Virus record (IMG/VR): IMGVR_UViG_3300045970_000884
Location: 1 to 56,763 of that record
Reading direction: 5' to 3' (one strand)
DNA from: a virus
DNA: 56,763 nucleotides
Shown here piece by piece: positions 2,974-49,864 of the stretch; the first letter of the stretch is position 1; each line of letters opens with the position of its first letter. The notes beneath the pieces were generated by a model that worked only from the letters and a program-made list of their open reading frames with translations, had not been told where the DNA came from and did not search any database. The position numbers and the translations under genes were made by a program.

Positions 2974-2993
2974 CACCAATTCCCTCCAGACCC

Positions 2994-3004
2994 TTGGCAT
3001 AAGG
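2994..3004 (+). promoter_or_regulatory. GGCATAAG motif, candidate phage promoter (copy a)
   Basis: The sequence TTGGCATAAGG lies in the gap between the HTH gene and the membrane-protein gene at 3083. The core GG(C/G)ATAAG recurs at 5727, 19384, 27606 and 33041, always between genes and always reading toward a plus-strand gene. A small inverted repeat GGTCA/TGACC and a terminator-like hairpin lie between this copy and the gene. Confidence 0.4.
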
Positions 3005-3591: not shown

Positions 3592-5403
3592 TCAGTCGAT
3601 CTCGGACGAAGCTCCCGTACGCGCAGACGGGTTGAGCACATCGTGCCGCGGCACGCGAAGCATCGAGACGAGGAAGCAAAGCAGCATGGAGTGGAAGGTA
3701 TCGTCCGTGCGGTCGGGTGCGTGCTTGTATTCGATCTGCCGAGTCTGCTCGTTGTACTCGCTGAAGATGTTCAGCATGTCGGCGCCGAAGGGTTCCTTGA
3801 AGTGGCTCCAGTCGGGGAAGCGGAAGACGTTCCTTCGCTTGATGGCGTTGAACACATCGCTCATCACTTCGGTGCGGTGGACGAGGAACCTCTTGAGGGG
3901 ATCCTCCCACTTCACCTTCTGGCCCGGCTGGCTGTACTGGTACTTCCAGATGCGGCCCTGCCCGAACTTGCGGGTGAGGTGGTCGTTGCGATCGAAGCCG
4001 CCGCCGTAGTCGGCTCCCACACACTCGACCTGCCAGTTCCGGATCAACTCCTCCACAATGCCCAACTGGATGGGCGGCTCGAGCTCCTGCCCCTCGAAGC
4101 GGTGGACGTAGAAGATGGTGAAGAAGCCGTTGATGTAGGTGCCCAAGGAGAGGACGGTGTACGTCCCTTCGCCGGTGCCCCAGTCGATGCCGCAGAAGAT
4201 GGGCGAGGTCCCAGAGGCATCGTGCTTCACCTTCGCCAAGGTCTGCGGCGACATGTAGAAGCCCTGGATGCAGTTGTCGATGATGTCCTGCTGCATCAGG
4301 GGACGGGTGCCAGAGTCATACGAGAGCCCGAGCACCTCGTTGTAGAAGCGGCCGCGCGGGTACGTCTGGAACTTCACCAGGATGTCGTCCCACTTCAGCC
4401 ACGGCACCATCAGCTGCGGGATGCGGAAGCCCTCGAAGGCTTTGTCTCCAAGGCCACCGTCCTGCGCCGGCCTGCGGATCTCCGGGTAGAGCGAGGCCCA
4501 CTGGGCCATCGGGTGCGTGGGGTTGATGACCTCGTTGCACTTGTCGCAGACGAGGCCCTTCTTCCCGATGCTGTCTTCCGTGAGGATGTTCCAGTGCCAG
4601 CTCGAGGAGTCGCCCGGCGTGCCGTGTCTCTCGCAGGGAACCACCCATTCGTTCTGGGTGCTGAAGTCGTTCCAGTACTTCTCGATGGCGTTGTCGAGAG
4701 TCTTCGGCGTCCCTGAGTAGGTGAAGATCTTGTAGGGGGAGTGGGAGGCGCACTCCTCGATGATGGGGATGTTGTCGGTGTTGATGTCCTGGATCTCGTC
4801 GATCTCGATCATGTCCGCTGGGATGCCGCGGACTCGGTCGGCGTGGTGGTACGCGTAGCGCAGCGTCACCTTCGACCGGTTGATGAACTGCTTCTCGAAG
4901 ACGTTGTCCGAGAGCTTGGTGGTGGTCCAGCTCTTCAGAACTTCGCTGGTCTCCATCGGCTCCTTGAGCCGGTCTCTGGAGAAGGTCTTGGTCTGCTGGT
5001 TGGTGGGCGAGACGTAGAGGACGTTGAAGGCGTTGATGACGCAGCAGTAGGAGAGCGTGCGGTTGCCCAGCAGCGTGCTCTTCTCCACTTGGCGGCCGCA
5101 CTTGAAGAGGGTGCGCCTGGCTGGTGTGTCGTAGGGGAGGCGGAGGTACTCACGCCCATCGAAGCTGAAGTTGACGTGCTTCTGGCTTTCCTTGTCGGGG
5201 ATGCGGACAGCGAACTCAGTGAACCGGGAGGGGGAGATGTTGATGAGATCGGCCCGTCTCTTGGCGAGCTCGTCCTGGTCGATGTACTCCTCGGGGATCG
5301 CCGGCTCGTAGTCCCACTCCTCGGGGATCTCCGGTTCGCCGTTCACCATCACGACGTTGCTGCTGTAGTTCCGCATGAACTCTTCTGCACTGAGGACTTG
5401 CAT
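3592..5403 (-). CDS. terL: Terminase large subunit (DNA packaging ATPase/nuclease)
   Basis: A 603-residue packaging motor protein. It should power DNA entry into the prohead and cut the genome. The Walker A-like P-loop is CGRQVEKST at residues 102-110 and Walker B is MIEIDEIQD at 198-206. The nuclease domain begins at GIDWGTGEG (405-413), with further acidic residues in GADYGGG and in DRTDD near the C-terminus. An insertion with C257, H260, C286 and C289 looks like a zinc knuckle between the ATPase and nuclease halves. ATG 5403 is preferred over GTG 5406 because GGGAG is better spaced. No small terminase subunit is recognised nearby. Confidence 0.9.
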   Translation of the reverse strand: MQVLSAEEFMRNYSSNVVMVNGEPEIPEEWDYEPAIPEEYIDQDELAKRRADLINISPSRFTEFAVRIPDKESQKHVNFSFDGREYLRLPYDTPARRTLFKCGRQVEKSTLLGNRTLSYCCVINAFNVLYVSPTNQQTKTFSRDRLKEPMETSEVLKSWTTTKLSDNVFEKQFINRSKVTLRYAYHHADRVRGIPADMIEIDEIQDINTDNIPIIEECASHSPYKIFTYSGTPKTLDNAIEKYWNDFSTQNEWVVPCERHGTPGDSSSWHWNILTEDSIGKKGLVCDKCNEVINPTHPMAQWASLYPEIRRPAQDGGLGDKAFEGFRIPQLMVPWLKWDDILVKFQTYPRGRFYNEVLGLSYDSGTRPLMQQDIIDNCIQGFYMSPQTLAKVKHDASGTSPIFCGIDWGTGEGTYTVLSLGTYINGFFTIFYVHRFEGQELEPPIQLGIVEELIRNWQVECVGADYGGGFDRNDHLTRKFGQGRIWKYQYSQPGQKVKWEDPLKRFLVHRTEVMSDVFNAIKRRNVFRFPDWSHFKEPFGADMLNIFSEYNEQTRQIEYKHAPDRTDDTFHSMLLCFLVSMLRVPRHDVLNPSARTGASSEID

Positions 5404-5583: not shown

Positions 5584-5727
5584 ATGCTGGCGTGGAACAT
5601 CGTCTGCATGTACGCGGCCAAGAACGACTGCATCATGGTCGGTCGGCCCACCTTCTCTGCCCTCGACATGCGCTTCGACGTAGGAATGAAGCAGCGTTTG
5701 GGCAAAGAAAGGAACTCGGAGCCGTAG
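5584..5727 (+). CDS. Possible small protein, unknown
   Basis: A possible 47-residue product starting at ATG 5584; a GTG start at 5533 would give 64 residues. Its codons favour G or C in the third position like real genes here, and it is the only reading frame on the plus strand that fills this 346-base gap between terminase and the next plus gene. The ribosome site is weak and I recognise no family. Its TAG stop directly abuts a GGCATAAG motif. It may be a relict or a genuine small gene. Confidence 0.35.
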   Translation: MLAWNIVCMYAAKNDCIMVGRPTFSALDMRFDVGMKQRLGKERNSEP

Positions 5728-5734
5728 GCATAAG
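5727..5734 (+). promoter_or_regulatory. GGCATAAG motif, candidate phage promoter (copy b)
   Basis: GGCATAAG lies 18 bases upstream of the ATG at 5753, the first gene of the RNase HII operon. It is the closest of the five copies to a start codon. An AGAGGAA ribosome site follows it. Confidence 0.45.
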
Positions 5735-7234: not shown

Positions 7235-7236
7235 CC

Positions 7237-8351: not shown

Positions 8352-9209
8352 CTAGTTCTTGAGGTCTGACTTCTTGTCTTCCATGCCCGAGCCAGAGAAG
8401 TTACCTGCCGGGGCCAGCTTGAGCAAGGACGGAGGCGTGATCTGCGGGTGCTCCATGCGCCACTGCTCGAACTGCTTGAGGGTGTCCTTCAGCGCCATGT
8501 CGGAGGTGGCGAGGGCGTTGTGTGCCTCGATGACCACCTTGCCCAGCAGGTTGATGCTCTTCACCTTGTCGATGGGGACGCCCGGCTTCTCCCTCACCTC
8601 GAGGAGCGCCTCGTGAGCGATGCGCTGCACGTCCTCGATCATCTTCTTCGAGTCGATCTGCTGGTCGAGTCGGAGGTGGTAGAAGGACAGCTTCGGCGGC
8701 GCCGTGAGCAGGCTCATGTATCTCTCGTAGTAGGAGGTGCGGCTGAAGAGGAAGCGCCCCCACTCGTCGAAGGTCATGGACGGCACGTTCCAGAAGTAGT
8801 GCCGGTACATCGAGAGGCCCTCTTCCGTCAGGTGCCAGTTCTGCTTGGCGTTCACCAGCTTGCAGGTGAGCTTGAGGTCGAGACGGGAGAGCAGCAGCTG
8901 CTCCGCCACCAGCCGCTGGTCAGGGAAGCTGAGCAGGTCGAGCGCCTGGTTGAGCGCGTCGTTGGGGTGGAACATCTCGTAGACCTGCTGCTCGCGCAGG
9001 TACCGCACGCTGGGCCGGTGCGTGCGGTCGGCCGGGTTGAACCCCGCCGGCGCGGCGGGGATCTCGGCCTTCATGATGGGCAGCAGCGTGGGGTCTGCTG
9101 AGAGGAAGCCCCACTCCTCCAGCCGCCTCTGGATCATGGCGTCTGGGATGGTGCGGTCCTGGATGATGAGATACCGCAGGAAGTTGGCGGCTGGATGCTT
9201 AGAGGGCAT
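8352..9209 (-). CDS. Late protein, unknown; start rebuilt by HNH insertion
   Basis: A 285-residue protein, mostly helical and with no domain I recognise. It begins MPSKHPAANF. Its first codons overlap the end of the HNH endonuclease gene. A second, differently coded MPSKHP start lies upstream of that endonuclease at 9658, which indicates that the endonuclease inserted at the 5' end of this gene and supplied a new start. The present start has only a weak GGAAGG ribosome site very close to the ATG. Co-transcription with the 722-residue virion protein is likely. Confidence 0.65.
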   Translation of the reverse strand: MPSKHPAANFLRYLIIQDRTIPDAMIQRRLEEWGFLSADPTLLPIMKAEIPAAPAGFNPADRTHRPSVRYLREQQVYEMFHPNDALNQALDLLSFPDQRLVAEQLLLSRLDLKLTCKLVNAKQNWHLTEEGLSMYRHYFWNVPSMTFDEWGRFLFSRTSYYERYMSLLTAPPKLSFYHLRLDQQIDSKKMIEDVQRIAHEALLEVREKPGVPIDKVKSINLLGKVVIEAHNALATSDMALKDTLKQFEQWRMEHPQITPPSLLKLAPAGNFSGSGMEDKKSDLKN

Positions 9210-9633
9210 GGGCCTTCCGAAGGTAGAGTGCTGCCTTCCAGAGCAACTTCGGGCTGTCCTTCATCGCCCCGATGACCCTGTTGCAGCGGTTGCAGAGAAG
9301 ACCGCGGACCTTGCCAGTCTTGTGGTCGTGGTCGACCGCCAGGTTCTTCCAACCCTTCACCTGCTTACCACGACAGATCGCGCAGCGGTTCTTCTGCTTC
9401 TTCTTGAGCGCCTCGTACGCTTCCTTCGTGAGGCCGAAGCGATACCCCACCATGTAGACGCGACGAGCCGCCCGGTTCTTCTTGTTGTACTCCTTCTGGT
9501 AGGCCAGCTTCTGCTTCCGCGTCTTCTTGTAGTGGGCTCGCTGCTGCGCCTGGGTGCGTCGCTTGTTCCGACGCACCCATCGCTTGGTGTACTGCCGAGC
9601 GTTCTCTCTGGCTTCAGCGGTGACGGCGCCCAT
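9199..9633 (-). CDS. HNH homing endonuclease (endonuclease VII-like)
   Basis: A 144-residue free-standing endonuclease. A very basic N-terminal half, rich in Arg, Lys and Gln, should bind DNA. The C-terminal half carries the endonuclease VII-like zinc/HNH core: CAIC near residue 95, the catalytic block VDHDHKTG near 112-119, and CNRC near 126-129. Such genes cut alleles that lack them and spread by repair. The start has no visible ribosome site, consistent with weak expression. It separates the 722-residue protein gene from the 285-residue gene and is flanked by duplicated, recoded starts of the latter. Confidence 0.85.
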   Translation of the reverse strand: MGAVTAEARENARQYTKRWVRRNKRRTQAQQRAHYKKTRKQKLAYQKEYNKKNRAARRVYMVGYRFGLTKEAYEALKKKQKNRCAICRGKQVKGWKNLAVDHDHKTGKVRGLLCNRCNRVIGAMKDSPKLLWKAALYLRKAHAL

Positions 9634-9640
9634 AGTGCAC

Positions 9641-9658
9641 GGGGTGCTTCGATGGCAT
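9641..9658 (-). pseudogene. Relict six-codon start of the 285-residue gene
   Basis: ATG at 9658 opens six codons for MPSKHP, followed by unrelated sequence leading into the HNH gene. The same six residues start the functional gene at 9209, but with four of the five codons after ATG changed at the third base. It lies seven bases after the stop of the 722-residue gene, the place expected for the original start. This looks like the pre-insertion 5' end. The match is short, so chance is not fully excluded. Confidence 0.6.
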
Positions 9659-9664
9659 GTGTCC

Positions 9665-11833
9665 TCAGTCCTCTCGGGGGCCCGTCTCCGCCACGCTCTT
9701 CAGGCCGGAGATGACGTTCTCGATGTTCTTGATGCTGCGCTCCATCGGCCCTTCGGGCAGCTCGTTCATGCCGAGGTAGGAGAAGAGTAGCATCTCGGAG
9801 AGCTTCTCGCTGGTCTGCGCCAGCTCCGGGATGTAGTCGATGAAGGTCGACAGGTTCTCCGGGTTGATGAAGTTCAGGGCCAGCACGTTGTTGACCGAGC
9901 TCTGGTCCTGAAGCTCCGCCGCCTCCTTGATGAGGTCGACCCGAAGGTTCGGGATGTCGGCCATCAGCGCGGCCGCGGTCTTGGTGGCGCCCTGGTACCG
10001 CTCGCCGAGGGTGGTGATGGTCTTCAGCCCTGCCATCTTCACAGAGCCAGTACGACGTGCTTCCGCGACCTTCTTCTTCGCGACGAGGCCATCAACTCCA
10101 AGAAGACCAAGCATGCATTCAGCATCAACCGGGGAAAGATCATGGCGGAACTCCGTGGCCAGCTTGTCGAGGCCGCAGCCGCCCACCAGCTGGAAGGCGC
10201 CGTTGTAGAAGAGGGTAGCAGAGGTCTTCTCCTTCTTGGCCGCCTCGCCCACGTTCACCTGCACGGTGGGCTTCTCCTTCTTCTCGGCCGGCTTGCCCTC
10301 CTTCTTCTCGGGCTTCTTCTCGCCACCCGGCTTCTTCTCCCCGGGCTTGCCGGCAGCCGGCTTCTTGGCCGGAGGCTTGGGAGCGCCGTCGCTCTGGCCA
10401 CCCTGGCCCTCCTGCATCGCCGGGTCCTCGCCCATGTCCTGGCCACCGCCCTGGAGCTGGGTCTGGTTGTTCAGGCGCATGAAGTTCCAGGTCTTCGGGA
10501 AGGCGTACTCCACATCGCTGATGCGCTGCGGTTGGGAGAGGCCGTCCGTGAAGGAGATCTGGAGGTGCTGGCCCATCATGTCGAGGGCGACCAGCGTCGG
10601 GGAGCCGTCGGGGCCGGACATGGCCGAGCGGATGGTGATGGGCTGGGTGCAGATGGCGTTGCCACCCTGCGTGGTGAAGAGAACGCCCTCACCCACCGGC
10701 TTGGACTCGCCCGGCAGGTTGGTGCTCTTGCCCACCATGTCGCCCACGATGGAGTCCTGGAGCGCGTAGGCGGAGCCGTTGGTGAAGAGGGCCAGCGGCT
10801 GCTTGGTGAAGTTGCCGTCCCAGGCGAGGGTGAAGGGGAAGACCCAGCCCATGAGCTGGTTCTCCATGGTGTCCATGACCTTGTACTCGCCGAAGGACTC
10901 GACGGGCTTCGCCACCTGCTCGAAGGCTTCCTCGAGCTCGATGGGCTCCGCCGTCATGGTCGCCGTCTGCCCAGGCACCATGGCCTGCGCGGCATCTGGG
11001 CCGATGGCCTCGGCGGCCTCCTCGCCCGGCACGGCTTCGCCGCGCAGGGTGACGGGATTCACCGCCCCGACGTTGGCGTGCTTCACCAGGAACTCCCCAC
11101 CGGGGAGCTTCTGGAGGGTGACCACCGTCGGCTGGATCTGCTCGGCGATGTAGGCGAAGCGGTCGTTGGCGGAGGCGCGCTTGGTCTTGTCGAAGATCTC
11201 GACCAGGTCCCCAACCACGCCGGAACGCTTGAAGCCGGAACGGATGGTGGCGTCGGTGGCGACCTTCTCGATGAAGGCTGTGGCATCCCGCTCGGAGATG
11301 GTGGGGGCGATGGCGTGCAGCAGGCTTCGCGCCGACGCCATCTTCGTCTCACCGCCCTGGCCCATGCTGGAGCGCTGCGGGGGCATGAGCGGCTCGATGA
11401 GGCTGGGATCGCGGGGCACCGTCGCCGAGAGGTCGAAGGTCGAGGGATTGAAGAGGGTCTCGCGGACCCGCTCCTCGGTCAGCGGGAAGACGCTGTCGCC
11501 GTCGAGGAAGACCGAGAAGGGCTTCACCTGGCGCTCGATCCCGATGACCGGGATGCGGAGGTGTGGGATGCCCATGTCGCCGTGCTCGATGTCAGGGCGC
11601 TCGGTGCGGCTCGACACGTCAGCGTATCCGAAGGCGAAGCCGCGCGTAGGATCGGCGCGGTCGAGGTTCACGTTCAGGTCGTAGTCGGAGAGGTACGGGA
11701 GCTGCTTGAAGAGCTCGCTCGTCAACTCCTGCGGCCAGTTCTCCGCGGACTCCGAGAGGCGTGCGGCGAAGGCCGACGTCTTCTCGTGGCCCTCTTCCTT
11801 CTTCTCCGGGGTCTGGTCGAGATACAGGTCCAT
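9665..11833 (-). CDS. Large virion structural protein, unknown
   Basis: A 722-residue protein with no named domain I can recognise. The N-terminal third contains mixed folded sequence with LDGDSVFPLT-type beta segments. The middle holds a long low-complexity linker rich in Gly, Pro, Lys and Glu (about residues 460-530), and the C-terminal part is helical. HEKTS at 16-20 and several later KTA/KVA motifs match other late proteins. It lies directly downstream of the spike gene, so a baseplate, tail or internal virion role is plausible but not shown. Confidence 0.6.
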   Translation of the reverse strand: MDLYLDQTPEKKEEGHEKTSAFAARLSESAENWPQELTSELFKQLPYLSDYDLNVNLDRADPTRGFAFGYADVSSRTERPDIEHGDMGIPHLRIPVIGIERQVKPFSVFLDGDSVFPLTEERVRETLFNPSTFDLSATVPRDPSLIEPLMPPQRSSMGQGGETKMASARSLLHAIAPTISERDATAFIEKVATDATIRSGFKRSGVVGDLVEIFDKTKRASANDRFAYIAEQIQPTVVTLQKLPGGEFLVKHANVGAVNPVTLRGEAVPGEEAAEAIGPDAAQAMVPGQTATMTAEPIELEEAFEQVAKPVESFGEYKVMDTMENQLMGWVFPFTLAWDGNFTKQPLALFTNGSAYALQDSIVGDMVGKSTNLPGESKPVGEGVLFTTQGGNAICTQPITIRSAMSGPDGSPTLVALDMMGQHLQISFTDGLSQPQRISDVEYAFPKTWNFMRLNNQTQLQGGGQDMGEDPAMQEGQGGQSDGAPKPPAKKPAAGKPGEKKPGGEKKPEKKEGKPAEKKEKPTVQVNVGEAAKKEKTSATLFYNGAFQLVGGCGLDKLATEFRHDLSPVDAECMLGLLGVDGLVAKKKVAEARRTGSVKMAGLKTITTLGERYQGATKTAAALMADIPNLRVDLIKEAAELQDQSSVNNVLALNFINPENLSTFIDYIPELAQTSEKLSEMLLFSYLGMNELPEGPMERSIKNIENVISGLKSVAETGPRED

Positions 11834-11844
11834 GTTGTCCTCTC

Positions 11845-12930
11845 CTACGATGCCTTCAGGTTCTTGGCTGCCTTGGCGGGCGGGGGCTCAGGCGGCGTGC
11901 CGGTGGTGATGCTACCGGGCGGATTCTGGATGTGCACATGCGTCGTGAGCCACTTGATGAGGTCCGAGGTCCCCAGCATCACCGGCTCTGGAGTACCGGC
12001 CCCTACAACGAGAGCCGGGCCGGGCCCAGACGTTGAGACCACCATCCCGCCGGCGGCCGCAACAGCCACAGCCCCGGTCTTGGAGATGATGTTCACGAGA
12101 CCGCCCGTCATCTCGGCGACCAGCGTGCCGACGAGAGACGCCTTCTGCTTGGCGGTGAGCGTGATGTTCTGAGCATCCACCTTCACATCTCCCGTCACCT
12201 TCCAGGTGATGGCGCCCTTGGATGTCAGGTCCAAGTCTCCGGACTTCTTCCCCGTGACCGTGAGATTGGCGACTGCGCCCTTCTCTCCTGACGCACGGAG
12301 AACCAGACTCAGGATAGTGGCATCGTCACCCTTGTGGGAACCGATTTGGACCGTGGCCACATGTTCGGCATCCGTGGCCTTCTCCTTGGCGTTGATGGTG
12401 AAGGTCGTCTGCTTGTCCCCGTAGGAGTTGTCCTCCGGGATGCCGACCGTCCACTTCAGCTCTCCGCCCAACGTCTGGAGGGAGTAGTTGGCACAGAGGT
12501 CCTTGATCATGTTGTTGATCGGGAGGAAGAGACGCTGGGCCAGAGGCGTGGCCCCGATCTCTACCACACCGCCGCGGCGCAGGAGGATGTGGTTCTCGTC
12601 TCGGGTACCGAGGTAGATGTCCCCCGGGTTGAGGTCGAGTCGTCGGTTGCGGTGGCTGCGGTCCTTCCCAGGCAGGGACGTCCAGCCCACCACGAAAGGC
12701 ATCCCACCATCCGACGGCTCCATGAGCCAGCAGAGGGACCCCACCTCGGGCATGCAGTAGACCCCCTCGCCGTTGTGGGGGTGCATGTAGGGGGATGACC
12801 AAGAGACCCAAGCCAGCGTCTTCTGCGTCAGCTCCGTCTGCACCACGAGGGTGTAGTTGGTAACGTTCACGTCGAGCACGCGCGCCCGCTGTACGGTGGC
12901 TGCATCGAGCTGCCGGCGGAAGAGTGACAT
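11845..12930 (-). CDS. Baseplate central spike (gp5/VgrG-like, OB-fold plus beta-helix)
   Basis: A 361-residue tail spike. The N-terminal 110 residues look like the gp5/gpV OB fold, ending in GDIYLGTRDENHILLRRGG, and a repetitive beta-strand region with many T, V and K (about 190-310) follows. The C-terminal segment contains LTTHVHIQNPPGS, similar to the H-rich tip region of gpV-type spikes. Such proteins form a trimeric needle at the tail tip that pierces the cell envelope. No lysozyme domain is visible. The ATG at 12930 directly follows the RNA polymerase stop at 12933. Confidence 0.75.
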   Translation of the reverse strand: MSLFRRQLDAATVQRARVLDVNVTNYTLVVQTELTQKTLAWVSWSSPYMHPHNGEGVYCMPEVGSLCWLMEPSDGGMPFVVGWTSLPGKDRSHRNRRLDLNPGDIYLGTRDENHILLRRGGVVEIGATPLAQRLFLPINNMIKDLCANYSLQTLGGELKWTVGIPEDNSYGDKQTTFTINAKEKATDAEHVATVQIGSHKGDDATILSLVLRASGEKGAVANLTVTGKKSGDLDLTSKGAITWKVTGDVKVDAQNITLTAKQKASLVGTLVAEMTGGLVNIISKTGAVAVAAAGGMVVSTSGPGPALVVGAGTPEPVMLGTSDLIKWLTTHVHIQNPPGSITTGTPPEPPPAKAAKNLKAS

Positions 12931-12932
12931 GG

Positions 12933-15900
12933 CTAGTACACGTGCGGCTTCTTGGACTTCAGGTCAGCGGGTGGCCTACCAAACTCCGCACCATACGCCA
13001 GCCCGGGGATGGGATGGCTCCCGTGAATGTTGGACTTCTGGGCCATGGCGGCCGCACCACGAACCGTCGAGTGGAGGTTCTGGTAGTTGAGCCTGGCCAT
13101 CCAGTCGGTGGTGATGTTGCGAGGGATCTCTCCGACGCCCTTGAGCACCGGCTCGTGGATGACGGGGGCTTCCTTCTCCCCCTTCGTCCTGTTGTGCTCC
13201 TCGACCACGGAGCGAGGAAGGATGTCCCCTGGCAGCCACTCCGAGTGGCCCGGGTCCTTCACCTTGGTCAGGTTGGTGATGTTGCGAACCGCCACCTCGA
13301 TGTTCCTGCGTCGCACCCCGAGCCCCTTGAACAGCCCATCGTGGAGTTCATCGGTCAGGTAGTTCTGCACGGCGTGGATGCTCTTCGTCGACTCGAGGAG
13401 CCGGTGCGGGTTGACGAACCCACCAGAGAGCTTGTCGCCCCTCTTCACCTGCGACCCCACCTTGATGTCCTCGTTGATGAGGTGCCGGGGGATGTAGTGC
13501 TTCGTCTCCACCGGCTGGTCGTTGTGGTAGCTGGTGACGATGATGTCGGCGCCGCCGGCTGGGTCCTTGCGGACCGCGCTGACCTTGCCGGTCGCCATCG
13601 ACACCGTGGCCTCATCCCGGATCCGCTTCGGCATCTCGAGGAGGTTGCGGAGACGGGTGATGGCGTCCATCGACTTGCCGGCCGCTGACCCGGCGACGCC
13701 GCCCGTGTGGAAGGCCCGCATCGAGAGCTGGGTCGACGGCTCTCCCATGGCCTGGCTGGCCAGGATGCCGATGTTGGTCCCGTTGCTGTGGAGAACTCCG
13801 GACTCATTCAGGCCGAAGCACTTCGCGCACATCCCATCTCCGTGAGCGCACTTCAACGCGCTGCGGACGGAGACCGTCTCGATCTTCGAGTTCTTGAGCC
13901 GAGAGAGCACGGCAGGCGTGAGAAGTTCTCCAGCCTTGATGTGGGTGCCGTCCTTCAGCTTGTAGGGAGCCGCCAAGTAGCGGTCGTGGATGTCCTCGTC
14001 GTTGACCTTCATGTGAACACCTTCCTTCGTCCCGCAGTCCGGAGAGACGATGAGGGTCGACATGGAGGCGTTGATGATGTCCTTGGTGATGGCGCCAGGG
14101 TCTGCTGTGCCGCGGCCCTTCTGGATCATGCCCTTGCGGGCGCCGTGCTGGTACATCCAGAAGTCCCCGATGTCGAGACCCTCTGCGAAGGAGCGCTTGA
14201 GCGGGTAGGGCACCACCTTGCCGGAGGAACTCTCCACCAGCATGGGGGCTGCGATCATCTGGCGAAGCTGGGAAGCATCACCTCGAGCACCGGAGAAGAC
14301 CATCTGGGCAAGGCGGTGGTCTCCCTGCGTCGGCCCGCCGTGTAGGAGTTTCTGGGCTTCCTCGATCTCTCCCGTGGCTCCCTGGTAGATGCGGATGACG
14401 TCGGCGTCGTGGGCCTCTCCCTTGCTCGACAGCTCATGCACCTTCTTCTCGGCCCTGCCGATGATGGCGTCACGCTGGGGGATGGTCTTCAGATCCTTGA
14501 GGCCGATGGAGAAGCCCAGCTTGTAGGACCACTCGTTGCCGAGGTTCTTCAGGGAGTCGACGGTGTTGGCGTAGTGGTCCCGGTGCTTGTTGGCGATCTC
14601 CGGGGCCATCTTCTTCAGCTCTCTCTTCGAGAACTCGAACTCGCTGTTGTGGAGGACCTTCGAGTTCTGGGAGTAGCCACGAGGGAGGCGCGACTCGAGG
14701 AGTAGCCGGCCCAGCGTGGTGGGCTCCTTCATGCCCTTCAGGTGGACGACGTCCGTGACATCTGCATGGCCTTCGTCCACGGCCTTGTTGAGTTCGGTCG
14801 TGTTGGCGAACGTCTTGCCTGTCTTCTTGCCCCACTTCGAGAGGAGGTGGAGCCCCAGCAGGGCCTCGTTGGCCGGCAGGTACATCGCCCCGTAGTTGGT
14901 GGGGCTGAAGAGGTTGTTGGAAGGGAAGAGCTTCTTCGCTTCCTCCACGGCCTCTCTGGACATGGGGATGGTGCCGGCCATCGTGTCTCCGTCGAAGTCG
15001 GCGTTGAAGCCACCGCAGACCAGCGGGTGGATCTGGATGGCCTTGCCCTCCACCAGCTTCGGCTTGAAGGCCATGACTCCGAACTTGTGCAGCACCGGAT
15101 CACGCTTCAAGAGCAGAGGACGATCCACCACGACCTTCTCCAGCGCGCGGAAGGCGATGGGGGTCATCTTCTTGATCTCGTCCTGCGCCGCCAGCGGGTG
15201 GAAGTTCCACTTCTGGAGCTGGGCCACGACGTAGGGCTTGTACATCTCCATCGCCGCGCCCTTGGGGAGACCGACCTCGTCGATGCCCAACTTCGGTTCA
15301 GGGACGATGGTCGAGCGGACAGAGAGGTTCTGCCGGCGCTTCACCAGCTTCGACTGGAAGTAGCCCTCCTTCGGCTGCTCCACTCCTGGCTTGCCGCCGA
15401 TGATGTCGAGGATGCCCTTCAGGGCTCGGTCGCCGCTCTGGTCCGTGTCGTAGACCTCTCGATGAGTGCCCACCGCCTGGAGCGCCTTCATGGCGTCCCA
15501 GAGCTGGGTGCGGAGCGGCTGCTTGTGCTTGTCGTCGAAGTGGGCCGAGTCGAAGTTGCGGAGGTGCTCGTTGATGAGGCTGATGTTCTTGTAGTGCCCG
15601 TTGAGCGGGGAGTAGTTCACGTCGCCCGAGGGGGTGGCCGAGGCCGGACGGAACTTCGGAGGCACCACCGGAACGTAGTGCATCATGTAGGCGTCGTGGG
15701 GCTTGAGGTCCAAGTCCTTCAGCGCGAGCAGGTACTTGAGCTTCTTGTTGGCCCGGTCCAGCTCGTCGGCGCGCAGCCCTGGCAGGGCTCTCTTCAAGGC
15801 GTCGACTTCCTTGTGGACGTCGACCTTCTTGAGGGCCGCCTCGACGGCTGCGCCACCGGTCAGCCCTCCGATCGAGTGCTTCCCCGCCATGACGTCCTCG

Positions 15901-18900
15901 AACTCCTTCATCTTGAGGCCGAGGAGAACAGGCACAGGTCCGGGCTGGTTGCCGCCGCCACAGAAGATGGGGTTGGGTACCGGCTCGTCGAGCTTGATGT
16001 GGGACCACTTGTCGCCGTCGAGGCCACCGGTGAGCTGCTCATCGAAGAGGCCGCCCGGGACAGGCTTCAGGTCCTTGGAGCGGAGGGTCTTCGCTGCGTC
16101 CTTCAGTTCCCGGTTCCCGGTGAGGCGCAGGACTTCCTTGTTGGTGATGGGATGGATGCGGACGGAGGTCCCGTCCTTCGTCACGTTGACGCCAAGCCCA
16201 CGGAGCAGGCCCTCGAACTTCCGGTAGCTGAAGGGGACAGTGGGGGGCGGCGGCTCGTGCCCGTTCTGGATCATGTTCCAGAAGAGCATGTCCTGGTTGT
16301 CGCTCTTGTAGGTCGACATCTCCCGGATGTTGTGCCGGGCGTTGTGGCCGAGCAGCGAGTACATCTCGAGAGCGCCGAAGCCCTGACCGCCGTGCTCGCC
16401 GCCCTTCACCGGCTGCTGGTCGGTGTCGACGGCGAGCTTCCGCCCGTTGACGTCCGTCCCTCCGCCTCGAGCCGAGACCTTCTTCTCCACCTGGTGCTTC
16501 AGCTTCAGGACGTACTGAGGACCGACCAGCACGGAGCCGAGGGCGCGGCGAGTATCGCTCGGGTCGTAGACAGTCTCCTCGTCCGTGATCCCGTGAGCCT
16601 TCAGCTCCTTCTCCAGCTTGGTGCGGTGGTCGGAGTGGGCGTCACCGAAGTTGTCGACGATGTAGGGCTTGCCCGTCTTCTCGGCGATCTTCCCTGCGGC
16701 AGTCTCCAGCATCTGGCCGGGGTTGATGCGGGAGGGGATGCCTGACGGATTGAGGAGGACGTGCAGCGACTCCCGCTCCCCCTTGGCGTTCTTCGTGAAG
16801 GGCATCTCGTGGTCAGGCAGGATCAGCGAGACGATGCCCTTGTTGCCGTGCCGGCCGGTGAGCTTGTCGCCGATGACGACGGGCTCGTCGGTGCGGACGT
16901 AGACGCGCACGCCGCGGCCCTGCGGGTCGTGCACCACCTTGGTGACGGTTCCCTCGTGGTCCTCGTCCCAGACCATCGACTTGTTCTTCACCGGCTTGAA
17001 GGCGCGCTTGTTGCCGTAGGCCGACATGAGCGACGCCTTCTTGGTGTCGTTCTTCCCGATGGCGGCGACGAGCACCTGGCCTGGCTTCACCTTGGTGCCG
17101 ACCTTCACGACGCCGTTGTCCTCGAGGGCGTCGAGGTACGCCTTGGGCATGGCCTGCGACTCCGAGATGGCCCACGCCTGGTACTTCGCCTTGCCGATGT
17201 GGTCGTTGTCGGGGTCGATCTCGACGATCTTCTTGTGCAGGTGCTCGGAGGTCAGTTTCTTCGCCGCGCTCTCCGAGATGACGATGCCGTCCTCGAAGTT
17301 GTAGCCCTTGTACGGGATGTAGCCGACCCGCAGGTTGGTACCGATGGCGAGGCTGCCGTCCTTGGTGAAGTTGTTGTCGGCTACCACCTGGCCCTTGCGA
17401 ACCTTGTCGCCGACCTTCACGGTCAGGTCCGAGTGCAGCATCCCCTTCGCATCGTTCAGGGGGAAGTTGTTGTAGAGGTGGACCTCATGCTTCTTGCCGT
17501 CGTCTCCAGCGATGTGAACGACGTCTCCCTTGATGGACGAGACCTTCCCCGCGGCGGGCGCACGGGAGGCGATGAAGTGCCCCAAGAGCTTCTCGAAGGT
17601 GTGCTCGGGATCGCCATGGTCCGTCTTCGACTGAACCAGCGGCACCTCTCGGTGCTTCAGGCCGATGGCCTGCTCCATCTGCTTGTCGGCCATCATGATG
17701 CGGTTGCCGTTGTCGGCCGACAGGAAGGGGACGAGGTTGGAGGCGTAGTTCCACATGCCCTTGGTGGAGGGCATGACGTAGCGCGAGTCCTTGAAGGGCT
17801 TGTTGACGATGTCGCCGCCAGAGGTCTTGGTGCGGACCGTGGCGGAGATGGGCTTGGGCTTGCCGTCGACCCAGGTCACCTGGTCCGGGAGCACGGCATC
17901 TGCCCCGTGGAAGTCGACGGCGTTCACCCAGGTGGACTTCCCTGTGTGAGTGTCGAAGACGGGGATCTCGAGGTCCTTCCCGTTCTTCCGGACGTGGGAA
18001 GCGAGGTGGAGGGTGATGCCGATCTTCTCGCCTTCCGGCGTGTGCATCGGGTCCAGGAAGCCGAAGTGGCTCTGGTTGATGGTCTGCATCCCCTCGGTGA
18101 GGGAGTTCTCGCTCTTGATGCCGCCGAAGTCCCGCGACATGAGCGTGGTCTTGCGGTGGGCTGAGAGCATCTGGATGGGGTTGGTCTGCTCGGACCGTTC
18201 CGCCACCGAGCCGCCCTTCGTGAAGAACTCGCCCACCGGGCGGCCGAAGAGGTTGGAGGCGACGATGTCTCGGACCGACTGCTTCTGGTCGATGGTCTGG
18301 CGAAGCCTGGGCCGGATGGTACGCGCGCCGGCGCGGAGGATCTTCTCGGGGATGAAGTCCTCGATGCTGGCAGTCTCCTTGAAGGCGAGGCTGTCGCGGT
18401 CGTCGGGCTGGTGCGTGCCGCGAGAGACACCGAGCAGCTTGTGCGCCGCCTGGAGCAGGGTCTTCCCGGTCACCGCCTCGTGCGCTTCCCCGAGCGTGAG
18501 CTTCGTGGTGTCGGGGCGGACGGAGAGCTGGTTGAAGAAGGAGTTGACGTGCTTGTGCAGGTCGTCGGGGGAGAGGTCAGCAGGTACAGGCTCCTCGGAG
18601 ACCAGCTTCACGAGCTTGGCGAGAGAGCCATTGAACTTCTCGTCGGTCTTCGGCTTGTTGGCCTCGAAGAGTGCCTTGCCCCAGCTCTTCTCGATGTCGT
18701 CGTCCGCCACCCCGAGGCTCTTCATGATCGGGTAGAGCGGGATGTGGGAGTTGCCGTACTTCATCGACAGCTTGCGCTTCACGGGGTCGAGGTGGACCGA
18801 GAAGGGGCGACCACCCTTCGCCAGGTTGAACTCCGACTCGAGCTCACCGTTGTCCTGCACCCGGGCGTAGATGCCGCTCTTCAGGCGGAACAGGTGGTCG

Positions 18901-19244
18901 ACCTGGTACTCGCTGCCGTTGACGATGTAGCTGTAGCGGTTGGTCAGCTTGGGGAGCCGGGCGAGGATGGAGCCCTTCGTCTCGTCGATCACCTTGCCCG
19001 TGGTGTTGTCCACGAGCTTCATGTCGGCCTTGATGGGGACGCCCCAGGTTCCGTCCTTGTCCTTCACCTCGGTCTGCGAAGAGACGTCGTCGGACTTGAG
19101 GTTGTCCTCGACGCGCAGGTTGGTGAGGTGGATGCTTTGCTTCCTGCCAGCGTACTTGCCGTCTGGGAAGTAGGACTTGATGGCTTCGAGCGTGTTCTTC
19201 TTGAGCGACTCGAAGGCCTGCTCAGGCTGGATGTTCTCGTCCAA
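12933..19244 (-). CDS. Single-chain DNA-dependent RNA polymerase (fused beta-beta')
   Basis: A 2,103-residue protein that fuses a bacterial-type beta subunit (about 1-1030) to beta' (about 1045-2103) and should make phage RNA. Beta hallmarks are HTPEGEKIG near 403, GYNFED 647-652 and GRHGNKG 797-803, with LNPSGIPSR-type and GEHGGQGFG blocks. Beta' hallmarks are LLKRDPVLHKFG, the catalytic NADFDGD at 1414-1420 with D1416, D1418 and D1420, GEPSTQLSMRAFHTGG at 1834-1849 (trigger loop region), and a second zinc site of C1737, C1799, C1806 and C1809. The first zinc domain of beta' is missing around 1066. The start is TTG 19244 with a weak AAGGG; no ATG or GTG is available before an in-frame stop. 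No alpha, omega or sigma is seen. Confidence 0.93.
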   Translation of the reverse strand: MDENIQPEQAFESLKKNTLEAIKSYFPDGKYAGRKQSIHLTNLRVEDNLKSDDVSSQTEVKDKDGTWGVPIKADMKLVDNTTGKVIDETKGSILARLPKLTNRYSYIVNGSEYQVDHLFRLKSGIYARVQDNGELESEFNLAKGGRPFSVHLDPVKRKLSMKYGNSHIPLYPIMKSLGVADDDIEKSWGKALFEANKPKTDEKFNGSLAKLVKLVSEEPVPADLSPDDLHKHVNSFFNQLSVRPDTTKLTLGEAHEAVTGKTLLQAAHKLLGVSRGTHQPDDRDSLAFKETASIEDFIPEKILRAGARTIRPRLRQTIDQKQSVRDIVASNLFGRPVGEFFTKGGSVAERSEQTNPIQMLSAHRKTTLMSRDFGGIKSENSLTEGMQTINQSHFGFLDPMHTPEGEKIGITLHLASHVRKNGKDLEIPVFDTHTGKSTWVNAVDFHGADAVLPDQVTWVDGKPKPISATVRTKTSGGDIVNKPFKDSRYVMPSTKGMWNYASNLVPFLSADNGNRIMMADKQMEQAIGLKHREVPLVQSKTDHGDPEHTFEKLLGHFIASRAPAAGKVSSIKGDVVHIAGDDGKKHEVHLYNNFPLNDAKGMLHSDLTVKVGDKVRKGQVVADNNFTKDGSLAIGTNLRVGYIPYKGYNFEDGIVISESAAKKLTSEHLHKKIVEIDPDNDHIGKAKYQAWAISESQAMPKAYLDALEDNGVVKVGTKVKPGQVLVAAIGKNDTKKASLMSAYGNKRAFKPVKNKSMVWDEDHEGTVTKVVHDPQGRGVRVYVRTDEPVVIGDKLTGRHGNKGIVSLILPDHEMPFTKNAKGERESLHVLLNPSGIPSRINPGQMLETAAGKIAEKTGKPYIVDNFGDAHSDHRTKLEKELKAHGITDEETVYDPSDTRRALGSVLVGPQYVLKLKHQVEKKVSARGGGTDVNGRKLAVDTDQQPVKGGEHGGQGFGALEMYSLLGHNARHNIREMSTYKSDNQDMLFWNMIQNGHEPPPPTVPFSYRKFEGLLRGLGVNVTKDGTSVRIHPITNKEVLRLTGNRELKDAAKTLRSKDLKPVPGGLFDEQLTGGLDGDKWSHIKLDEPVPNPIFCGGGNQPGPVPVLLGLKMKEFEDVMAGKHSIGGLTGGAAVEAALKKVDVHKEVDALKRALPGLRADELDRANKKLKYLLALKDLDLKPHDAYMMHYVPVVPPKFRPASATPSGDVNYSPLNGHYKNISLINEHLRNFDSAHFDDKHKQPLRTQLWDAMKALQAVGTHREVYDTDQSGDRALKGILDIIGGKPGVEQPKEGYFQSKLVKRRQNLSVRSTIVPEPKLGIDEVGLPKGAAMEMYKPYVVAQLQKWNFHPLAAQDEIKKMTPIAFRALEKVVVDRPLLLKRDPVLHKFGVMAFKPKLVEGKAIQIHPLVCGGFNADFDGDTMAGTIPMSREAVEEAKKLFPSNNLFSPTNYGAMYLPANEALLGLHLLSKWGKKTGKTFANTTELNKAVDEGHADVTDVVHLKGMKEPTTLGRLLLESRLPRGYSQNSKVLHNSEFEFSKRELKKMAPEIANKHRDHYANTVDSLKNLGNEWSYKLGFSIGLKDLKTIPQRDAIIGRAEKKVHELSSKGEAHDADVIRIYQGATGEIEEAQKLLHGGPTQGDHRLAQMVFSGARGDASQLRQMIAAPMLVESSSGKVVPYPLKRSFAEGLDIGDFWMYQHGARKGMIQKGRGTADPGAITKDIINASMSTLIVSPDCGTKEGVHMKVNDEDIHDRYLAAPYKLKDGTHIKAGELLTPAVLSRLKNSKIETVSVRSALKCAHGDGMCAKCFGLNESGVLHSNGTNIGILASQAMGEPSTQLSMRAFHTGGVAGSAAGKSMDAITRLRNLLEMPKRIRDEATVSMATGKVSAVRKDPAGGADIIVTSYHNDQPVETKHYIPRHLINEDIKVGSQVKRGDKLSGGFVNPHRLLESTKSIHAVQNYLTDELHDGLFKGLGVRRRNIEVAVRNITNLTKVKDPGHSEWLPGDILPRSVVEEHNRTKGEKEAPVIHEPVLKGVGEIPRNITTDWMARLNYQNLHSTVRGAAAMAQKSNIHGSHPIPGLAYGAEFGRPPADLKSKKPHVY

Positions 19245-19383
19245 GGGTCTGCCCTTCGCGAAAGGGAGCTGACGTAGCTCCAGAGTACGCTACCTCGACG
19301 CATGCGAGGTCTTCGCGGCCTCTAGTTGCTTCGAGGATAGCGGCCAAGCGTTCGATACGTCAAACGAAATGCCCAGAACTCTA

Positions 19384-19392
19384 GGGATAAGG
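19384..19392 (+). promoter_or_regulatory. GGGATAAGG motif, candidate phage promoter (copy d)
   Basis: GGGATAAGG lies in the 194-base divergent gap between the RNA polymerase start (19244) and the first plus gene (19439). It is 47 bases before the ATG. The rest of this gap holds short GC-rich inverted repeats and no other feature I can name. Confidence 0.45.
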
Positions 19393-27508: not shown

Positions 27509-27605
27509 CGTCGGGCTCCTTAAGGCACGCGGAGAGGGACTCGTCCGTGGTCCGAGTGTAGGCGTTGGGGCCCTTCTATGACAAGGAAACTCTCTTTGAG
27601 TCGGT

Positions 27606-27614
27606 GGGATAAGG
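27606..27614 (+). promoter_or_regulatory. GGGATAAGG motif, candidate phage promoter (copy e)
   Basis: GGGATAAGG lies in the 146-base gap between the divergent genes at 27508 and 27655, 41 bases before the ATG of the first gene of the long replication block. AGTGTA also occurs in this gap at 27555. Confidence 0.5.
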
Positions 27615-33019: not shown

Positions 33020-33040
33020 TTCGAATCCACATTCGAAGGT

Positions 33041-33106
33041 GGCATAAGGGGGCTGACTTCCACACGAGGTCAGCCCCCAATGCTTTGATGGGTCCTTAGG
33101 AGGGAC
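33041..33106 (+). promoter_or_regulatory. GGCATAAG motif and structured leader of the helicase gene (copy c)
   Basis: GGCATAAG at 33041-33048 overlaps a perfect 10-bp stem (GGGGGCTGAC 33048-33057 with GTCAGCCCCC 33069-33078). A second hairpin, GGTCC/GGACC, then encloses the ribosome site TTAGGAGG. A preceding TTCGAA repeat at 33020-33037 may be part of a terminator. The leader could attenuate the operon or hide the ribosome site until it is opened. Confidence 0.5.
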
Positions 33107-33107
33107 C

Positions 33108-34541
33108 GTGCACGACAACAACATCGAACACGCATTGCTTTCCAAGGTCATCGAGACGCGAGAGTTCCGCATCCTCGAGAAGGCGAAGATCGACGAGTCG
33201 TACTTCTTCACGCCAGAAGGGCAGGAGGTCTACCGCTTCATCAGAGACATCTACCACGCGACCGCAACCGCTGGCAGTGTTCCAAGCCGAGAGCTGGTTC
33301 AGCAGCAGTTCCGTTCCTTCCCCTTCTTCAACTCGAATGACGACGTCGCTGTCCTCACCGAGATCCTGCGCAAGGGGAAGATCGCTGTAGAGGTTCAGAT
33401 GCTCGCCGAACGTCTGATGATGACGGTCGGCACGAACCCGCTGGAAGCTCTTGCAGATCTCCGAGCAGCAACTCCTGGCCTATCCGCGCTGGCGGATCAG
33501 AGCGAGGACTTCTCGATGGCGGCCGCCTACAACATGCTGAAGGCCCGCTACGAGATGGTGCAAGGCTCGAAGGGTGTCATCGGTATCCCTTACCCTTGGC
33601 AGCCGCTGAACGAAGCCACGCAGGGAATGAAGAGGCAGAACTTCATCGTGGTCTACGGCCGCCCCAAGTCGATGAAGACCTGGTGGGCCCTCAAGATCGC
33701 GGTGTCGGCCTACGTCGAGTCCCGGCGCAGGGTGCTCTTCTACTCCAGAGAGATGTCACATGATGAGATCCTGGGCCGCGCTGCATGCATCCTGGCCGAG
33801 GTCGACTACCACGAGTACCTCAACGGCCGGCTCCAGCCCCAGGTTCGGGACCACCTCTTCGGGGTTCTTGCAGACCTCGTCGAGGACGAGAAGTACGCCG
33901 GTGCCAACAACGGTGGTCGCAATCCGTTCTTCATCGTCACCACCGACCGCGATGCAGAAGATGGCGGTGGCGTCTCGTGGCTCCAGGCGAAGATCGAAGA
34001 GACCGAGCCCGACATCGCCTTCGTCGACGGCATGTACCTGATGAAGGATGACCGGACCAAGTCCCGCAGCATCGACTGGAAGAACATCTCCCACATCTCG
34101 CAGGACTTGAAGCTCACCGCCCGCCGCTTCGACATCCCTGTCGTGGGCATCACTCAGGCGAAGCGGTCCGCAGAGCAGTCGCACGGCGAGGACCTCACAG
34201 AGCTCGCCTTTGCCGACTCCATCGGCATGGACGCTGACTGCGTCTTCCGGGTCTCGAAGAAGTTCCACGTCGACCCGGTGCTGAAGAAGAAGGTGGTCGA
34301 CCTCCTCATCACCGCTCCTGGCGTTCGAGAGTCAGGAGTCTTCGAAGGCATGGTCATCCGGGCAGACCCCGGCCACACCTTCGAGTTGCGCAAGGTCCTC
34401 ACTGGGCTCGATGCCGACGAGAGGTCGAACTACGGAGAGGCACCCACTGGAGGATCTTCGACCCCGCGGCCAGTTGCCCGCTTCAGGTCGAGCTCCTTCC
34501 GCAACGATGGAACCCTGAAGGACCCCAAGGTTCCGTTGTGA
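33108..34541 (+). CDS. Replicative DNA helicase (DnaB family)
   Basis: A 477-residue ring helicase that unwinds DNA at the fork. The P-loop is GRPKSMKT at 184-191 and the ATPase core continues to a Walker B like DIAFVDGMYL near 307. The arginine-finger and C-terminal regions include PVVGITQAKR near 344-353. Residues 1-110 are a typical DnaB N-terminal helical domain. It starts at GTG with TTAGGAGG upstream, and the primase gene follows seven bases after its stop. The order helicase, primase, Zn protein, polymerase is a replisome block. Confidence 0.92.
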   Translation: MHDNNIEHALLSKVIETREFRILEKAKIDESYFFTPEGQEVYRFIRDIYHATATAGSVPSRELVQQQFRSFPFFNSNDDVAVLTEILRKGKIAVEVQMLAERLMMTVGTNPLEALADLRAATPGLSALADQSEDFSMAAAYNMLKARYEMVQGSKGVIGIPYPWQPLNEATQGMKRQNFIVVYGRPKSMKTWWALKIAVSAYVESRRRVLFYSREMSHDEILGRAACILAEVDYHEYLNGRLQPQVRDHLFGVLADLVEDEKYAGANNGGRNPFFIVTTDRDAEDGGGVSWLQAKIEETEPDIAFVDGMYLMKDDRTKSRSIDWKNISHISQDLKLTARRFDIPVVGITQAKRSAEQSHGEDLTELAFADSIGMDADCVFRVSKKFHVDPVLKKKVVDLLITAPGVRESGVFEGMVIRADPGHTFELRKVLTGLDADERSNYGEAPTGGSSTPRPVARFRSSSFRNDGTLKDPKVPL

Positions 34542-44645: not shown

Positions 44646-45073
44646 AGATCGTCTACCCGGGCCTGCCGCCGACCTCAAATCATATCTACTTCCGCGGAAC
44701 GCAGCTCACCGCGAAGGCCCGTGAGTTCGCCGAGAGCTTCGCCAAGTACTCGGCCCAGAACCACCTCCACGAGATCAGCAGGCTGAACCGAGACGGCCTC
44801 TACGCCGTCCACCTGCGCTTCTTCATGGAGCTCGTGAACCTGTCCTGGAACAACCCCGATGTCGCCCCATCAAGAAGGGCGAAAGATCGGTATAAGAGAA
44901 TCGACCTGGACAACCGAATCAAGCTCTTGACCGACTGCGTGCGTGACGCCATCGACATCGACGACTCACGCTTCTTCGCAGGCAGCCAAGAGAAGCACCA
45001 TGACCCCATCCCCGAGAACGCACGGGTGGAAGTCTACGTTCAAGAAGTCGACCCTACCGACTTCGGCATCTAG
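44633..45073 (+). CDS. RusA-like Holliday junction resolvase
   Basis: A 146-residue endonuclease starting at GTG 44633 with GGGGG upstream. LPPTSNHIYF matches the N-terminal PPSxN motif, and DLDNRIKLLTDCVRDAIDIDD (91-111) has the conserved DLDN and second acidic cluster that bind metal and cut junctions. It resolves recombination intermediates. The longer in-frame extension to 44582 is less likely because it lies in the preceding gene. A PD-(D/E)XK resolvase is also encoded at 41142. Confidence 0.85.
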   Translation: MPTLKIVYPGLPPTSNHIYFRGTQLTAKAREFAESFAKYSAQNHLHEISRLNRDGLYAVHLRFFMELVNLSWNNPDVAPSRRAKDRYKRIDLDNRIKLLTDCVRDAIDIDDSRFFAGSQEKHHDPIPENARVEVYVQEVDPTDFGI

Positions 45074-49821: not shown

Positions 49822-49858
49822 GGGGAGGCACTCGGTCCTGAGTGCCTCCCCTCTTTCT
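49822..49858. terminator. Strong terminator after the candidate RNA
   Basis: A perfect 12-bp stem (GGGGAGGCACTC with GAGTGCCTCCCC) and a GGTCCT loop is followed by TCTTTCTTA. It ends the plus-strand block and can also end the convergent minus gene at 49865. Confidence 0.88.
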
Positions 49859-49864
49859 TAGCCC

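What the first reader, a model, noticed from the sequence alone, without database searches (positions are those of the whole stretch)
12933..19244. Complete bacterial-type RNA polymerase beta and beta' in one phage polypeptide
One 2,103-residue frame holds nearly all beta hallmarks (HTPEG, GYNFED, GRHGNKG) and beta' hallmarks (NADFDGD 1414-1420, trigger loop 1834-1849, four Cys of the second zinc site) in order. The first beta' zinc domain is lost near residue 1066. Jumbo phages are known to carry split multi-subunit polymerases, and fused rpoBC exists in Helicobacter and Wolbachia. A full-length fusion of this kind in a phage is, to my knowledge, unusual or undescribed.
Basis: partly seen in the sequence, partly recalled or inferred. 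Interest (0 to 1): 0.93.

Follow-up and report, generated by a model that had tools for sequence, protein, structure and literature searches.

The report
Phage RNA polymerase in one chain
A large tailed phage carries both big subunits of a bacterial-type RNA polymerase fused into a single intact protein; the same fusion defines a widespread phage lineage whose genomes share a promoter-like DNA signal, so these phages probably transcribe their own genes with a one-piece version of the cell's central enzyme.

Summary
Window 12933-19244, minus strand, encodes 2103 aa: complete RpoB followed seamlessly by RpoC, with all catalytic residues present and only the first beta' zinc domain missing. It is not an assembly artefact and not a one-off. 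I found at least 91 distinct full-length fusions in IMG/VR (34-100% identity), under purifying selection across the join, always one polymerase per genome, and set between portal and baseplate-spike genes. They form one deep clade beside Bacteria together with phages such as Salmonella phage Arash, whose polymerase is cut inside beta' and never at the beta/beta' border, so in this clade fusion came first and fission later. No alpha or omega homologue was found in any of 22 long contigs. GGnATAAG, usually with an A 17-18 bases upstream, is the first- to third-ranked intergenic motif in 8 of 9 genomes tested and lies about 90% on the strand opposite the polymerase. I infer an alpha-independent single-chain RNA polymerase reading phage promoters, possibly packaged in the virion. 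The lineage is probably part of the known mReC phages; I found no text describing the fusion.

The parts
12933..19244 (-). fused rpoB-rpoC gene, 2103 aa, TTG start
   Evidence: identical in a 198 kb contig
16173..19244 (-). beta part, residues 1-1024
   Evidence: Pfam/NCBIfam RpoB; model of residues 1-1130 (pLDDT 84) matches solved bacterial beta, E 1e-72
12936..16172 (-). beta' part, residues 1025-2103, joined without a linker through a predicted beta hairpin (strands 1019-1024 and 1027-1032)
   Evidence: model of 905-2103 (pLDDT 87, pTM 0.85) matches bacterial beta', E 3e-68
15882..16181 (-). beta' N-terminal segment (residues 1022-1121) with the zinc-binding domain deleted at 1072-1075
   Evidence: hhalign to cellular beta' residues 14-148: Prob 97.7, E 1e-11
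14985..15005 (-). NADFDGD catalytic Mg-binding motif, residues 1414-1420
   Evidence: three Asp 41/41
17289..17306 (-). GYNFED, residues 647-652
   Evidence: E and D 41/41
16836..16856 (-). GRHGNKG with catalytic Lys (K794 just before, K802 inside), residues 797-803
   Evidence: both Lys 41/41
13698..13745 (-). trigger loop, residues 1834-1849 (H1846)
   Evidence: His 41/41
13818..14036 (-). second beta' zinc site, C1737/C1799/C1806/C1809
21427..23487 (-). portal protein, upstream of the polymerase in nearly all relatives
   Evidence: PHROG portal E 8e-10; synteny
11845..12930 (-). baseplate spike (gpV-like OB domain), directly downstream, often abutting or overlapping
   Evidence: Pfam PF04717 E 1e-4, just below cut-off; synteny
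3592..5403 (-). large terminase
   Evidence: Pfam GpA_ATPase 6e-13, PHROG 675 9e-59
33108..34541 (+). DnaB-like replicative helicase, first gene after the promoter-like site at 33041
   Evidence: Pfam DnaB_C 2e-24
19367..19391 (+). promoter-like A-N16-GGGATAAG, divergent from rpoBC
33024..33048 (+). promoter-like A-N16-GGCATAAG upstream of the dnaB-like gene
27589..27613 (+). promoter-like A-N16-GGGATAAG
5710..5734 (+). promoter-like A-N16-GGCATAAG
2979..3003 (+). promoter-like A-N16-GGCATAAG
44872..44896 (+). promoter-like A-N16-GGTATAAG (inside a predicted gene, may be chance)

Best explanation
A real, single-chain (about 230 kDa) DNA-dependent RNA polymerase of a roughly 200 kb tailed phage. 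SHOWN by sequence and fold: beta and beta' are joined end to end through what AlphaFold models as a tight beta hairpin; the active centre, trigger loop and second zinc site are intact; the first beta' zinc domain is deleted. SHOWN by comparison: the fusion was present in the ancestor of a deep phage clade; some descendants (Arash type) later cut the chain inside beta'. INFERRED: the covalent join takes over the role of the missing alpha subunits in bringing beta and beta' together, so the enzyme works without alpha and omega, with a phage-specific (not sigma70-like) initiation mode. INFERRED: it reads GGnATAAG promoters (usually with an A 17-18 bases upstream) that precede the non-structural genes on the other strand. 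LEAST CERTAIN (about 0.45): it is made with the structural proteins, packaged, injected, and starts early transcription.
For: Intact ORF with ordered RpoB/RpoC domains; both halves fold as beta and beta' (junction blocks pLDDT 94-95); all listed catalytic residues invariant in 41 of 41; dN/dS 0.085-0.13; at least 91 distinct fused ORFs; monophyly beside Bacteria; no alpha or omega in 22 long contigs while the searches ring in the control genomes; exactly one beta DPBB per genome; sigma-contact residues of the beta' coiled coil lost (R275 0/41); conserved gene order portal-RNAP-spike-TerL; GGnATAAG ranks 1-3 of thousands of patterns in 8 of 9 genomes, 152 of 167 sites opposite the RNAP strand, final G instead of the sigma70-like T seen in T4.
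Against: No biochemistry or virion proteomics. Some relatives encode sigma-like proteins (8 of 22), so sigma-independence is not general; a divergent sigma in the window's phage cannot be excluded. Alpha could be borrowed from the host. The motif could be read by host RNA polymerase with an alternative sigma; one of nine genomes (G018) shows it only weakly (rank 121), and its upstream element varies. Control genomes for the motif were only 50 kb each (T4, E. coli). Packaging rests on gene position and strand asymmetry alone. The phylogeny used a short tree search and only 11 bacterial and 2 archaeal rows.
Confidence: 0.72

Rival explanations
1. The fused enzyme is not packaged. Host RNA polymerase (perhaps with an alternative sigma) reads GGnATAAG early promoters, and the phage polymerase, made after infection, transcribes late structural genes, like the non-virion polymerase of phiKZ/AR9.
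For: Known jumbo phages use a separate non-virion enzyme for middle/late genes (PMC7598289); a second weak motif GGGCTAAG lies on the structural strand in two genomes (G001 5 intergenic/1 coding, G019 4/0); GGTATAAG in Arash and G004 resembles an extended -10.
Against: GGnATAAG ranks 1-3 in 8 phage genomes of 39-63% GC whose polymerases are mostly 34-61% identical, which fits a phage-encoded reader better than diverse host sigmas; in Arash (Salmonella host) 30 sites end in G and 3 in T, whereas the T4 sample has 7 T and no G; GGGCTAAG is absent between genes in three genomes and not above chance in the window.
Confidence: 0.3
2. The fused core recruits host alpha, omega and sigma and works as a hybrid holoenzyme.
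For: The phage genomes lack alpha and omega and mostly lack recognisable sigma; the fold is fully bacterial-type.
Against: The zinc-binding domain is absent and sigma-contact R275 is replaced in 41 of 41, E295 in all 26 fused; phage nvRNAPs work without alpha and omega (PMC7598289).
Confidence: 0.15
3. The polyprotein is cut after translation into beta and beta', so the fusion is only genetic.
For: Not excluded by sequence; Arash-type relatives encode the enzyme in 2-3 pieces.
Against: There is no linker at the join: a two-strand hairpin with pLDDT 94-95, under purifying selection; natural breaks lie inside beta' (P0001 ~1128 and ~1504), not at the join.
Confidence: 0.07
4. Assembly artefact, frameshift merging or captured host rpoBC.
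For: A metagenomic contig; some 'phage' records do hold host rpoB-rpoC operons.
Against: Same intact ORF in dozens of independent contigs from many metagenomes; 100% supported phage clade outside the sampled bacteria; phage genes on both sides in conserved order.
Confidence: 0.01

Closest known systems
mReC: multi-subunit RNAP-encoding Caudovirales (Weinheimer & Aylward 2020, PMC7481178)
   Same: Metagenomic tailed phages with readily alignable beta and beta' that branch outside, and sister to, Bacteria; RNAP among structural genes; contigs up to >200 kb.
   Different: The main text never says the subunits are fused and contrasts mReC with the fused crAssphage enzyme. Its 8 capsid proteins match PF07068, which I did not find in 22 fused/Arash-type contigs (that search had no positive control). 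Whether the fused contigs are among its 97 could not be checked (supplements not available).
Salmonella phage Arash and Vibrio phages D69/D148/D181
   Same: Homologous over the whole length (23-33% identity), same portal-RNAP order, same clade, same motif in Arash.
   Different: beta plus the N-half of beta' is one chain; the C-half of beta' is a separate gene (and in L131-L146 types beta' is cut again).
Fused RpoBC of Helicobacter/Wolbachia (NCBIfam PRK09603, PRK14844)
   Same: One chain, beta then beta'; PRK09603 is the best-scoring NCBIfam model.
   Different: Cellular, 2839-2890 aa models; the score is far below their curated cut-offs; the phage chain lacks the beta' zinc-binding domain and forms a separate deep clade.
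Jumbo-phage vRNAP/nvRNAP (phiKZ, AR9, PBS1; PMC7598289, PMC7824862)
   Same: Phage two-barrel RNAP without alpha or omega; weaker PHROG matches.
   Different: Those are split into 4-5 polypeptides with two enzymes per phage; here one chain and one enzyme per genome.
crAss-like phage RNAP and YonO
   Same: Both barrels in one chain.
   Different: Those are highly divergent from cellular RNAP (PMC7481178); this one aligns along its length to bacterial beta and beta'.

Membership tests
Bacterial-type multisubunit (two-barrel) RNA polymerase | beta' DPBB with NADFDGD and beta DPBB with two catalytic Lys | tested here: met
   D460/D462/D464 and K1065/K1073 equivalents 41/41
Bacterial-type multisubunit (two-barrel) RNA polymerase | Domain order of RpoB then RpoC conserved in full | tested here: met
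Bacterial-type multisubunit (two-barrel) RNA polymerase | beta' N-terminal zinc-binding domain | tested here: not met
   Cys 0/41 against 11/11 bacteria; flanks remain
Bacterial-type multisubunit (two-barrel) RNA polymerase | alpha and omega subunits | tested here: not met
   PF01000 and PF01192 absent in 22 of 22 contigs; host subunits could serve
mReC phages (PMC7481178) | Phage RNAP clade separate from and sister to Bacteria | tested here: met
   100% SH-aLRT, archaeal root
mReC phages (PMC7481178) | Capsid protein of PF07068 and terminase of PF03237 | tested here: inconclusive
   No PF07068 in 22 contigs, search without positive control; terminase matches PF05876 better, PF03237 only at E 0.0019
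mReC phages (PMC7481178) | Contig among the 97 published | not testable with these tools
   Supplementary files not available
Jumbo-phage vRNAP/nvRNAP | beta and beta' split into several polypeptides | tested here: not met
   single 2103 aa ORF
Jumbo-phage vRNAP/nvRNAP | Two polymerases per genome | tested here: not met
   one PF00562 match in each of 22
Virion RNA polymerase | Protein present in the particle | not testable with these tools
   only gene position and motif strand

The most novel reading that the evidence does not exclude
A one-chain, full-size, alpha- and sigma-independent RNA polymerase is packaged in the virions of a large phage lineage and starts infection by transcribing non-structural genes from an ancient phage-specific promoter (A-N16/17-GGnATAAG); within this clade today's fragmented phage polymerases arose by cutting a fused ancestor, the reverse of the proposal that split phage enzymes are primordial.
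Probability: 0.35. Interest if true: 0.88.

Novelty: new variant of a known kind. Interest (0 to 1): 0.75.

Why it matters
It offers a natural single-polypeptide version of the cellular RNA polymerase core, so whether alpha is needed for assembly becomes directly testable. It bears on an open dispute: PMC7824862 argues that split phage polymerases are ancestral, PMC7598289 recalls a proposal that introns split them; in this clade the break points inside beta' say fusion first, fission later. The conserved GGnATAAG element gives a ready-made promoter to test, including in culturable Salmonella phage Arash.

Tried and rejected
Artefact or host contamination (rejected). Residues 1030-1128 as a beta extension rather than beta' N-terminus (rejected by hhalign). 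Phage alpha or omega (none). Sigma factor as a general partner (only 8 of 22 by region 2, 6 of 22 over cut-off by region 4). Scans seeded with Carin-5/GN1 beta' and Rhizobium-phage beta' found no relatives in IMG/VR. Gp23 search found nothing but lacked a positive control. No literature found on an rpoB-rpoC fusion in phages and none found on the motif. dN/dS against L005 and L050 (0.40, 0.43) was set aside because synonymous sites look saturated. GGGCTAAG as a late promoter is weak.
Full report
OBSERVATION. The window is an IMG/VR virus record. The ORF at 12933-19244 lies on the minus strand, 2103 aa, TTG start. Pfam and NCBIfam give beta then beta' domains in order. The beta' zinc-binding domain alone is missing: residues 1022-1121 align profile to profile with cellular beta' 14-148 (Prob 97.7, E 1e-11), with the zinc ribbon cut out.

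NOT AN ARTEFACT. The same gene lies in a 198 kb contig identical over 26 kb, and relatives at 95, 86 and 65% identity are open through the whole frame. dN/dS against L003 and L004 is 0.085 and 0.13 for the whole ORF and 0.17 and 0.12 in the block holding the junction.

STRUCTURE. AlphaFold2 on alignments of 33 relatives gave pLDDT 83.7 for residues 1-1130 and 87.4 (pTM 0.85) for 905-2103. Their best solved matches are bacterial beta (E 1e-72) and bacterial beta' (E 3e-68). The join is modelled with high confidence as a hairpin: last beta strand 1019-1024, turn, first beta' strand 1027-1032 (my reading). So the fusion has no linker.

CATALYSIS. In 26 fused and 15 split phage sequences the residues equivalent to E. 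coli beta R678, E813, D814, K1065, K1073, R1106 and beta' R352, R425, D460, D462, D464, Q929, H936 are invariant. The second zinc site is kept in nearly all fused members. The beta' coiled-coil residue R275, known to contact sigma region 2 (my knowledge), is never Arg in the phages and always Arg in the 11 bacteria; E295 is lost in all fused members. The rifampicin-pocket residue H526 is also lost in the fused members, so resistance is predicted (inference).

DISTRIBUTION. An alignment-based scan found 323 IMG/VR relatives; the best 80 were read, and a second scan from a distant member added more. After removing exact duplicates, at least 91 distinct full-length fused ORFs of 2010-2874 aa remain. 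Two of the longest were read and carry intein-like inserts, in the trigger loop (L043) and in GRHGNKG (L084). One genome-collection hit (L100, a Deltaproteobacteria bin) is also fused. A second architecture (S1) joins beta to the N-half of beta' and separates the C-half at P0001 ~1504: Salmonella phage Arash, Vibrio phage D69 and IMG/VR contigs. A third (S2) has a further cut at ~1128, about 150 residues inside beta'. No member whose ORFs span the site is cut at the beta/beta' border.

PHYLOGENY. With LG+C20 PMSF and two archaeal rows as root, the phage sequences are one clade (100%), sister to all 11 bacterial rows; the fused (96%) and split (98%) groups are sisters. The LG+G4 tree of 74 rows agrees except that fused monophyly is weak (65%). 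Since beta-beta' are joined in every member and the outgroups have an uncut beta' (the two archaeal rows apart), one fusion on the stem, then fission after the catalytic barrel, then a second fission within S1-type phages, is the most economical history (inference). This contradicts, for this clade, the view that split phage enzymes are primordial (PMC7824862) and fits the splitting proposal recalled in PMC7598289. A homing endonuclease gene inside the D181 beta and the inteins show the kind of mobile elements that could cause cuts.

NEIGHBOURHOOD. Window genes include terminase, portal, a spike-like gpV and a replication module (DnaB-like helicase, primase, family A DNA polymerase, RecA-like). 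The order portal - RNAP - spike - 722-aa gene - 285-aa gene - terminase, all on one strand, recurs in most fused loci, and the portal-RNAP order also holds in the Arash-type loci. Each of 22 long contigs has exactly one beta DPBB and none has alpha or omega; sigma region 2 is found in 8, not in the window's 198 kb contig.

PROMOTER-LIKE SIGNAL. In the 198 kb contig GGnATAAG occurs 13 times between and 2 times within predicted genes (genes cover 93%), all intergenic sites on the strand opposite the polymerase, with A at -17 in 13/13 and C at -19 in 11/13. In the window itself the 6 sites are all on the plus strand and all have the A; the joint pattern is expected 0.29 times and no shuffle reached 6. 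Among all patterns of the form XX.XXXXX it ranks 1st in six genomes (including Arash and deep-branching G015), 2nd-3rd in two, and 121st in one (G018). Over nine genomes 152 of 167 intergenic sites lie opposite the polymerase, most with a median 46-59 bases to the next start. T4 and E. coli samples have no G-ending intergenic site. The genes were called with a simple codon-usage script, so the intergenic/coding classes are approximate; the window search does not depend on them.

MECHANISM. A single-chain core that needs no alpha platform, reads phage promoters on the non-structural strand, and, being encoded within the structural cluster, may be packaged and injected. The first clause rests on sequence and absence of alpha, the second on motif conservation across divergent phages, the third on gene position only.

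NOVELTY. The lineage is probably the known mReC or part of it (PMC7481178); a hydrothermal-mat phage polymerase at the base of mReC was also reported (PMC10159854), possibly of this kind. The complete fusion as lineage rule, the internal break points, single copy without alpha or omega, and the shared promoter-like motif are, as far as the searchable literature shows, undescribed.

Noticed in passing
L090 (IMGVR_UViG_3300022227_000020) 8950-15021; L087: The fused polymerase reads through 11 in-frame TGA codons aligned to mostly aromatic columns, two of them invariant Trp, suggesting TGA=Trp recoding; L087 has one such TGA.
   Followed up: partly
L043 8974-16380; L084 8956-16350: Intein-like inserts of roughly 340-390 aa interrupt the polymerase at the trigger loop (L043) and at GRHGNK (L084); L196, L207, L208, L214, L221 are also overlong.
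   Followed up: partly
G021:C2 (L112, L225, L228, L230), BPGB01000002.1, 211 kb: A contig binned as Woesearchaeota carries extra, divergent beta and beta' genes besides the archaeal operon on C7; perhaps a mis-binned jumbo phage.
   Followed up: no
window 52731-56708 minus: 1325-aa protein with weak Hint/intein matches near its C-terminus.
   Followed up: no
L009, L010 (OR846602, OR844998), L012 (CAKLQH020000005): Records labelled phage hold bacterial rpoB-rpoC genes that group with bacteria; likely contamination.
   Followed up: partly
L007 (Vibrio phage D181) 2785-8299: Homing endonuclease gene splits the Arash-type polymerase gene inside beta; D69 has it uncut.
   Followed up: partly
198 kb contig G001 (pieces L234-L243): Palindrome GGGTACCC is enriched between genes (10 intergenic, 2 coding).
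   Followed up: no
window 7236-7243 and 49857-49864, minus: GGGCTAAG on the structural strand; enriched in two genomes but not above chance in the window.
   Followed up: partly
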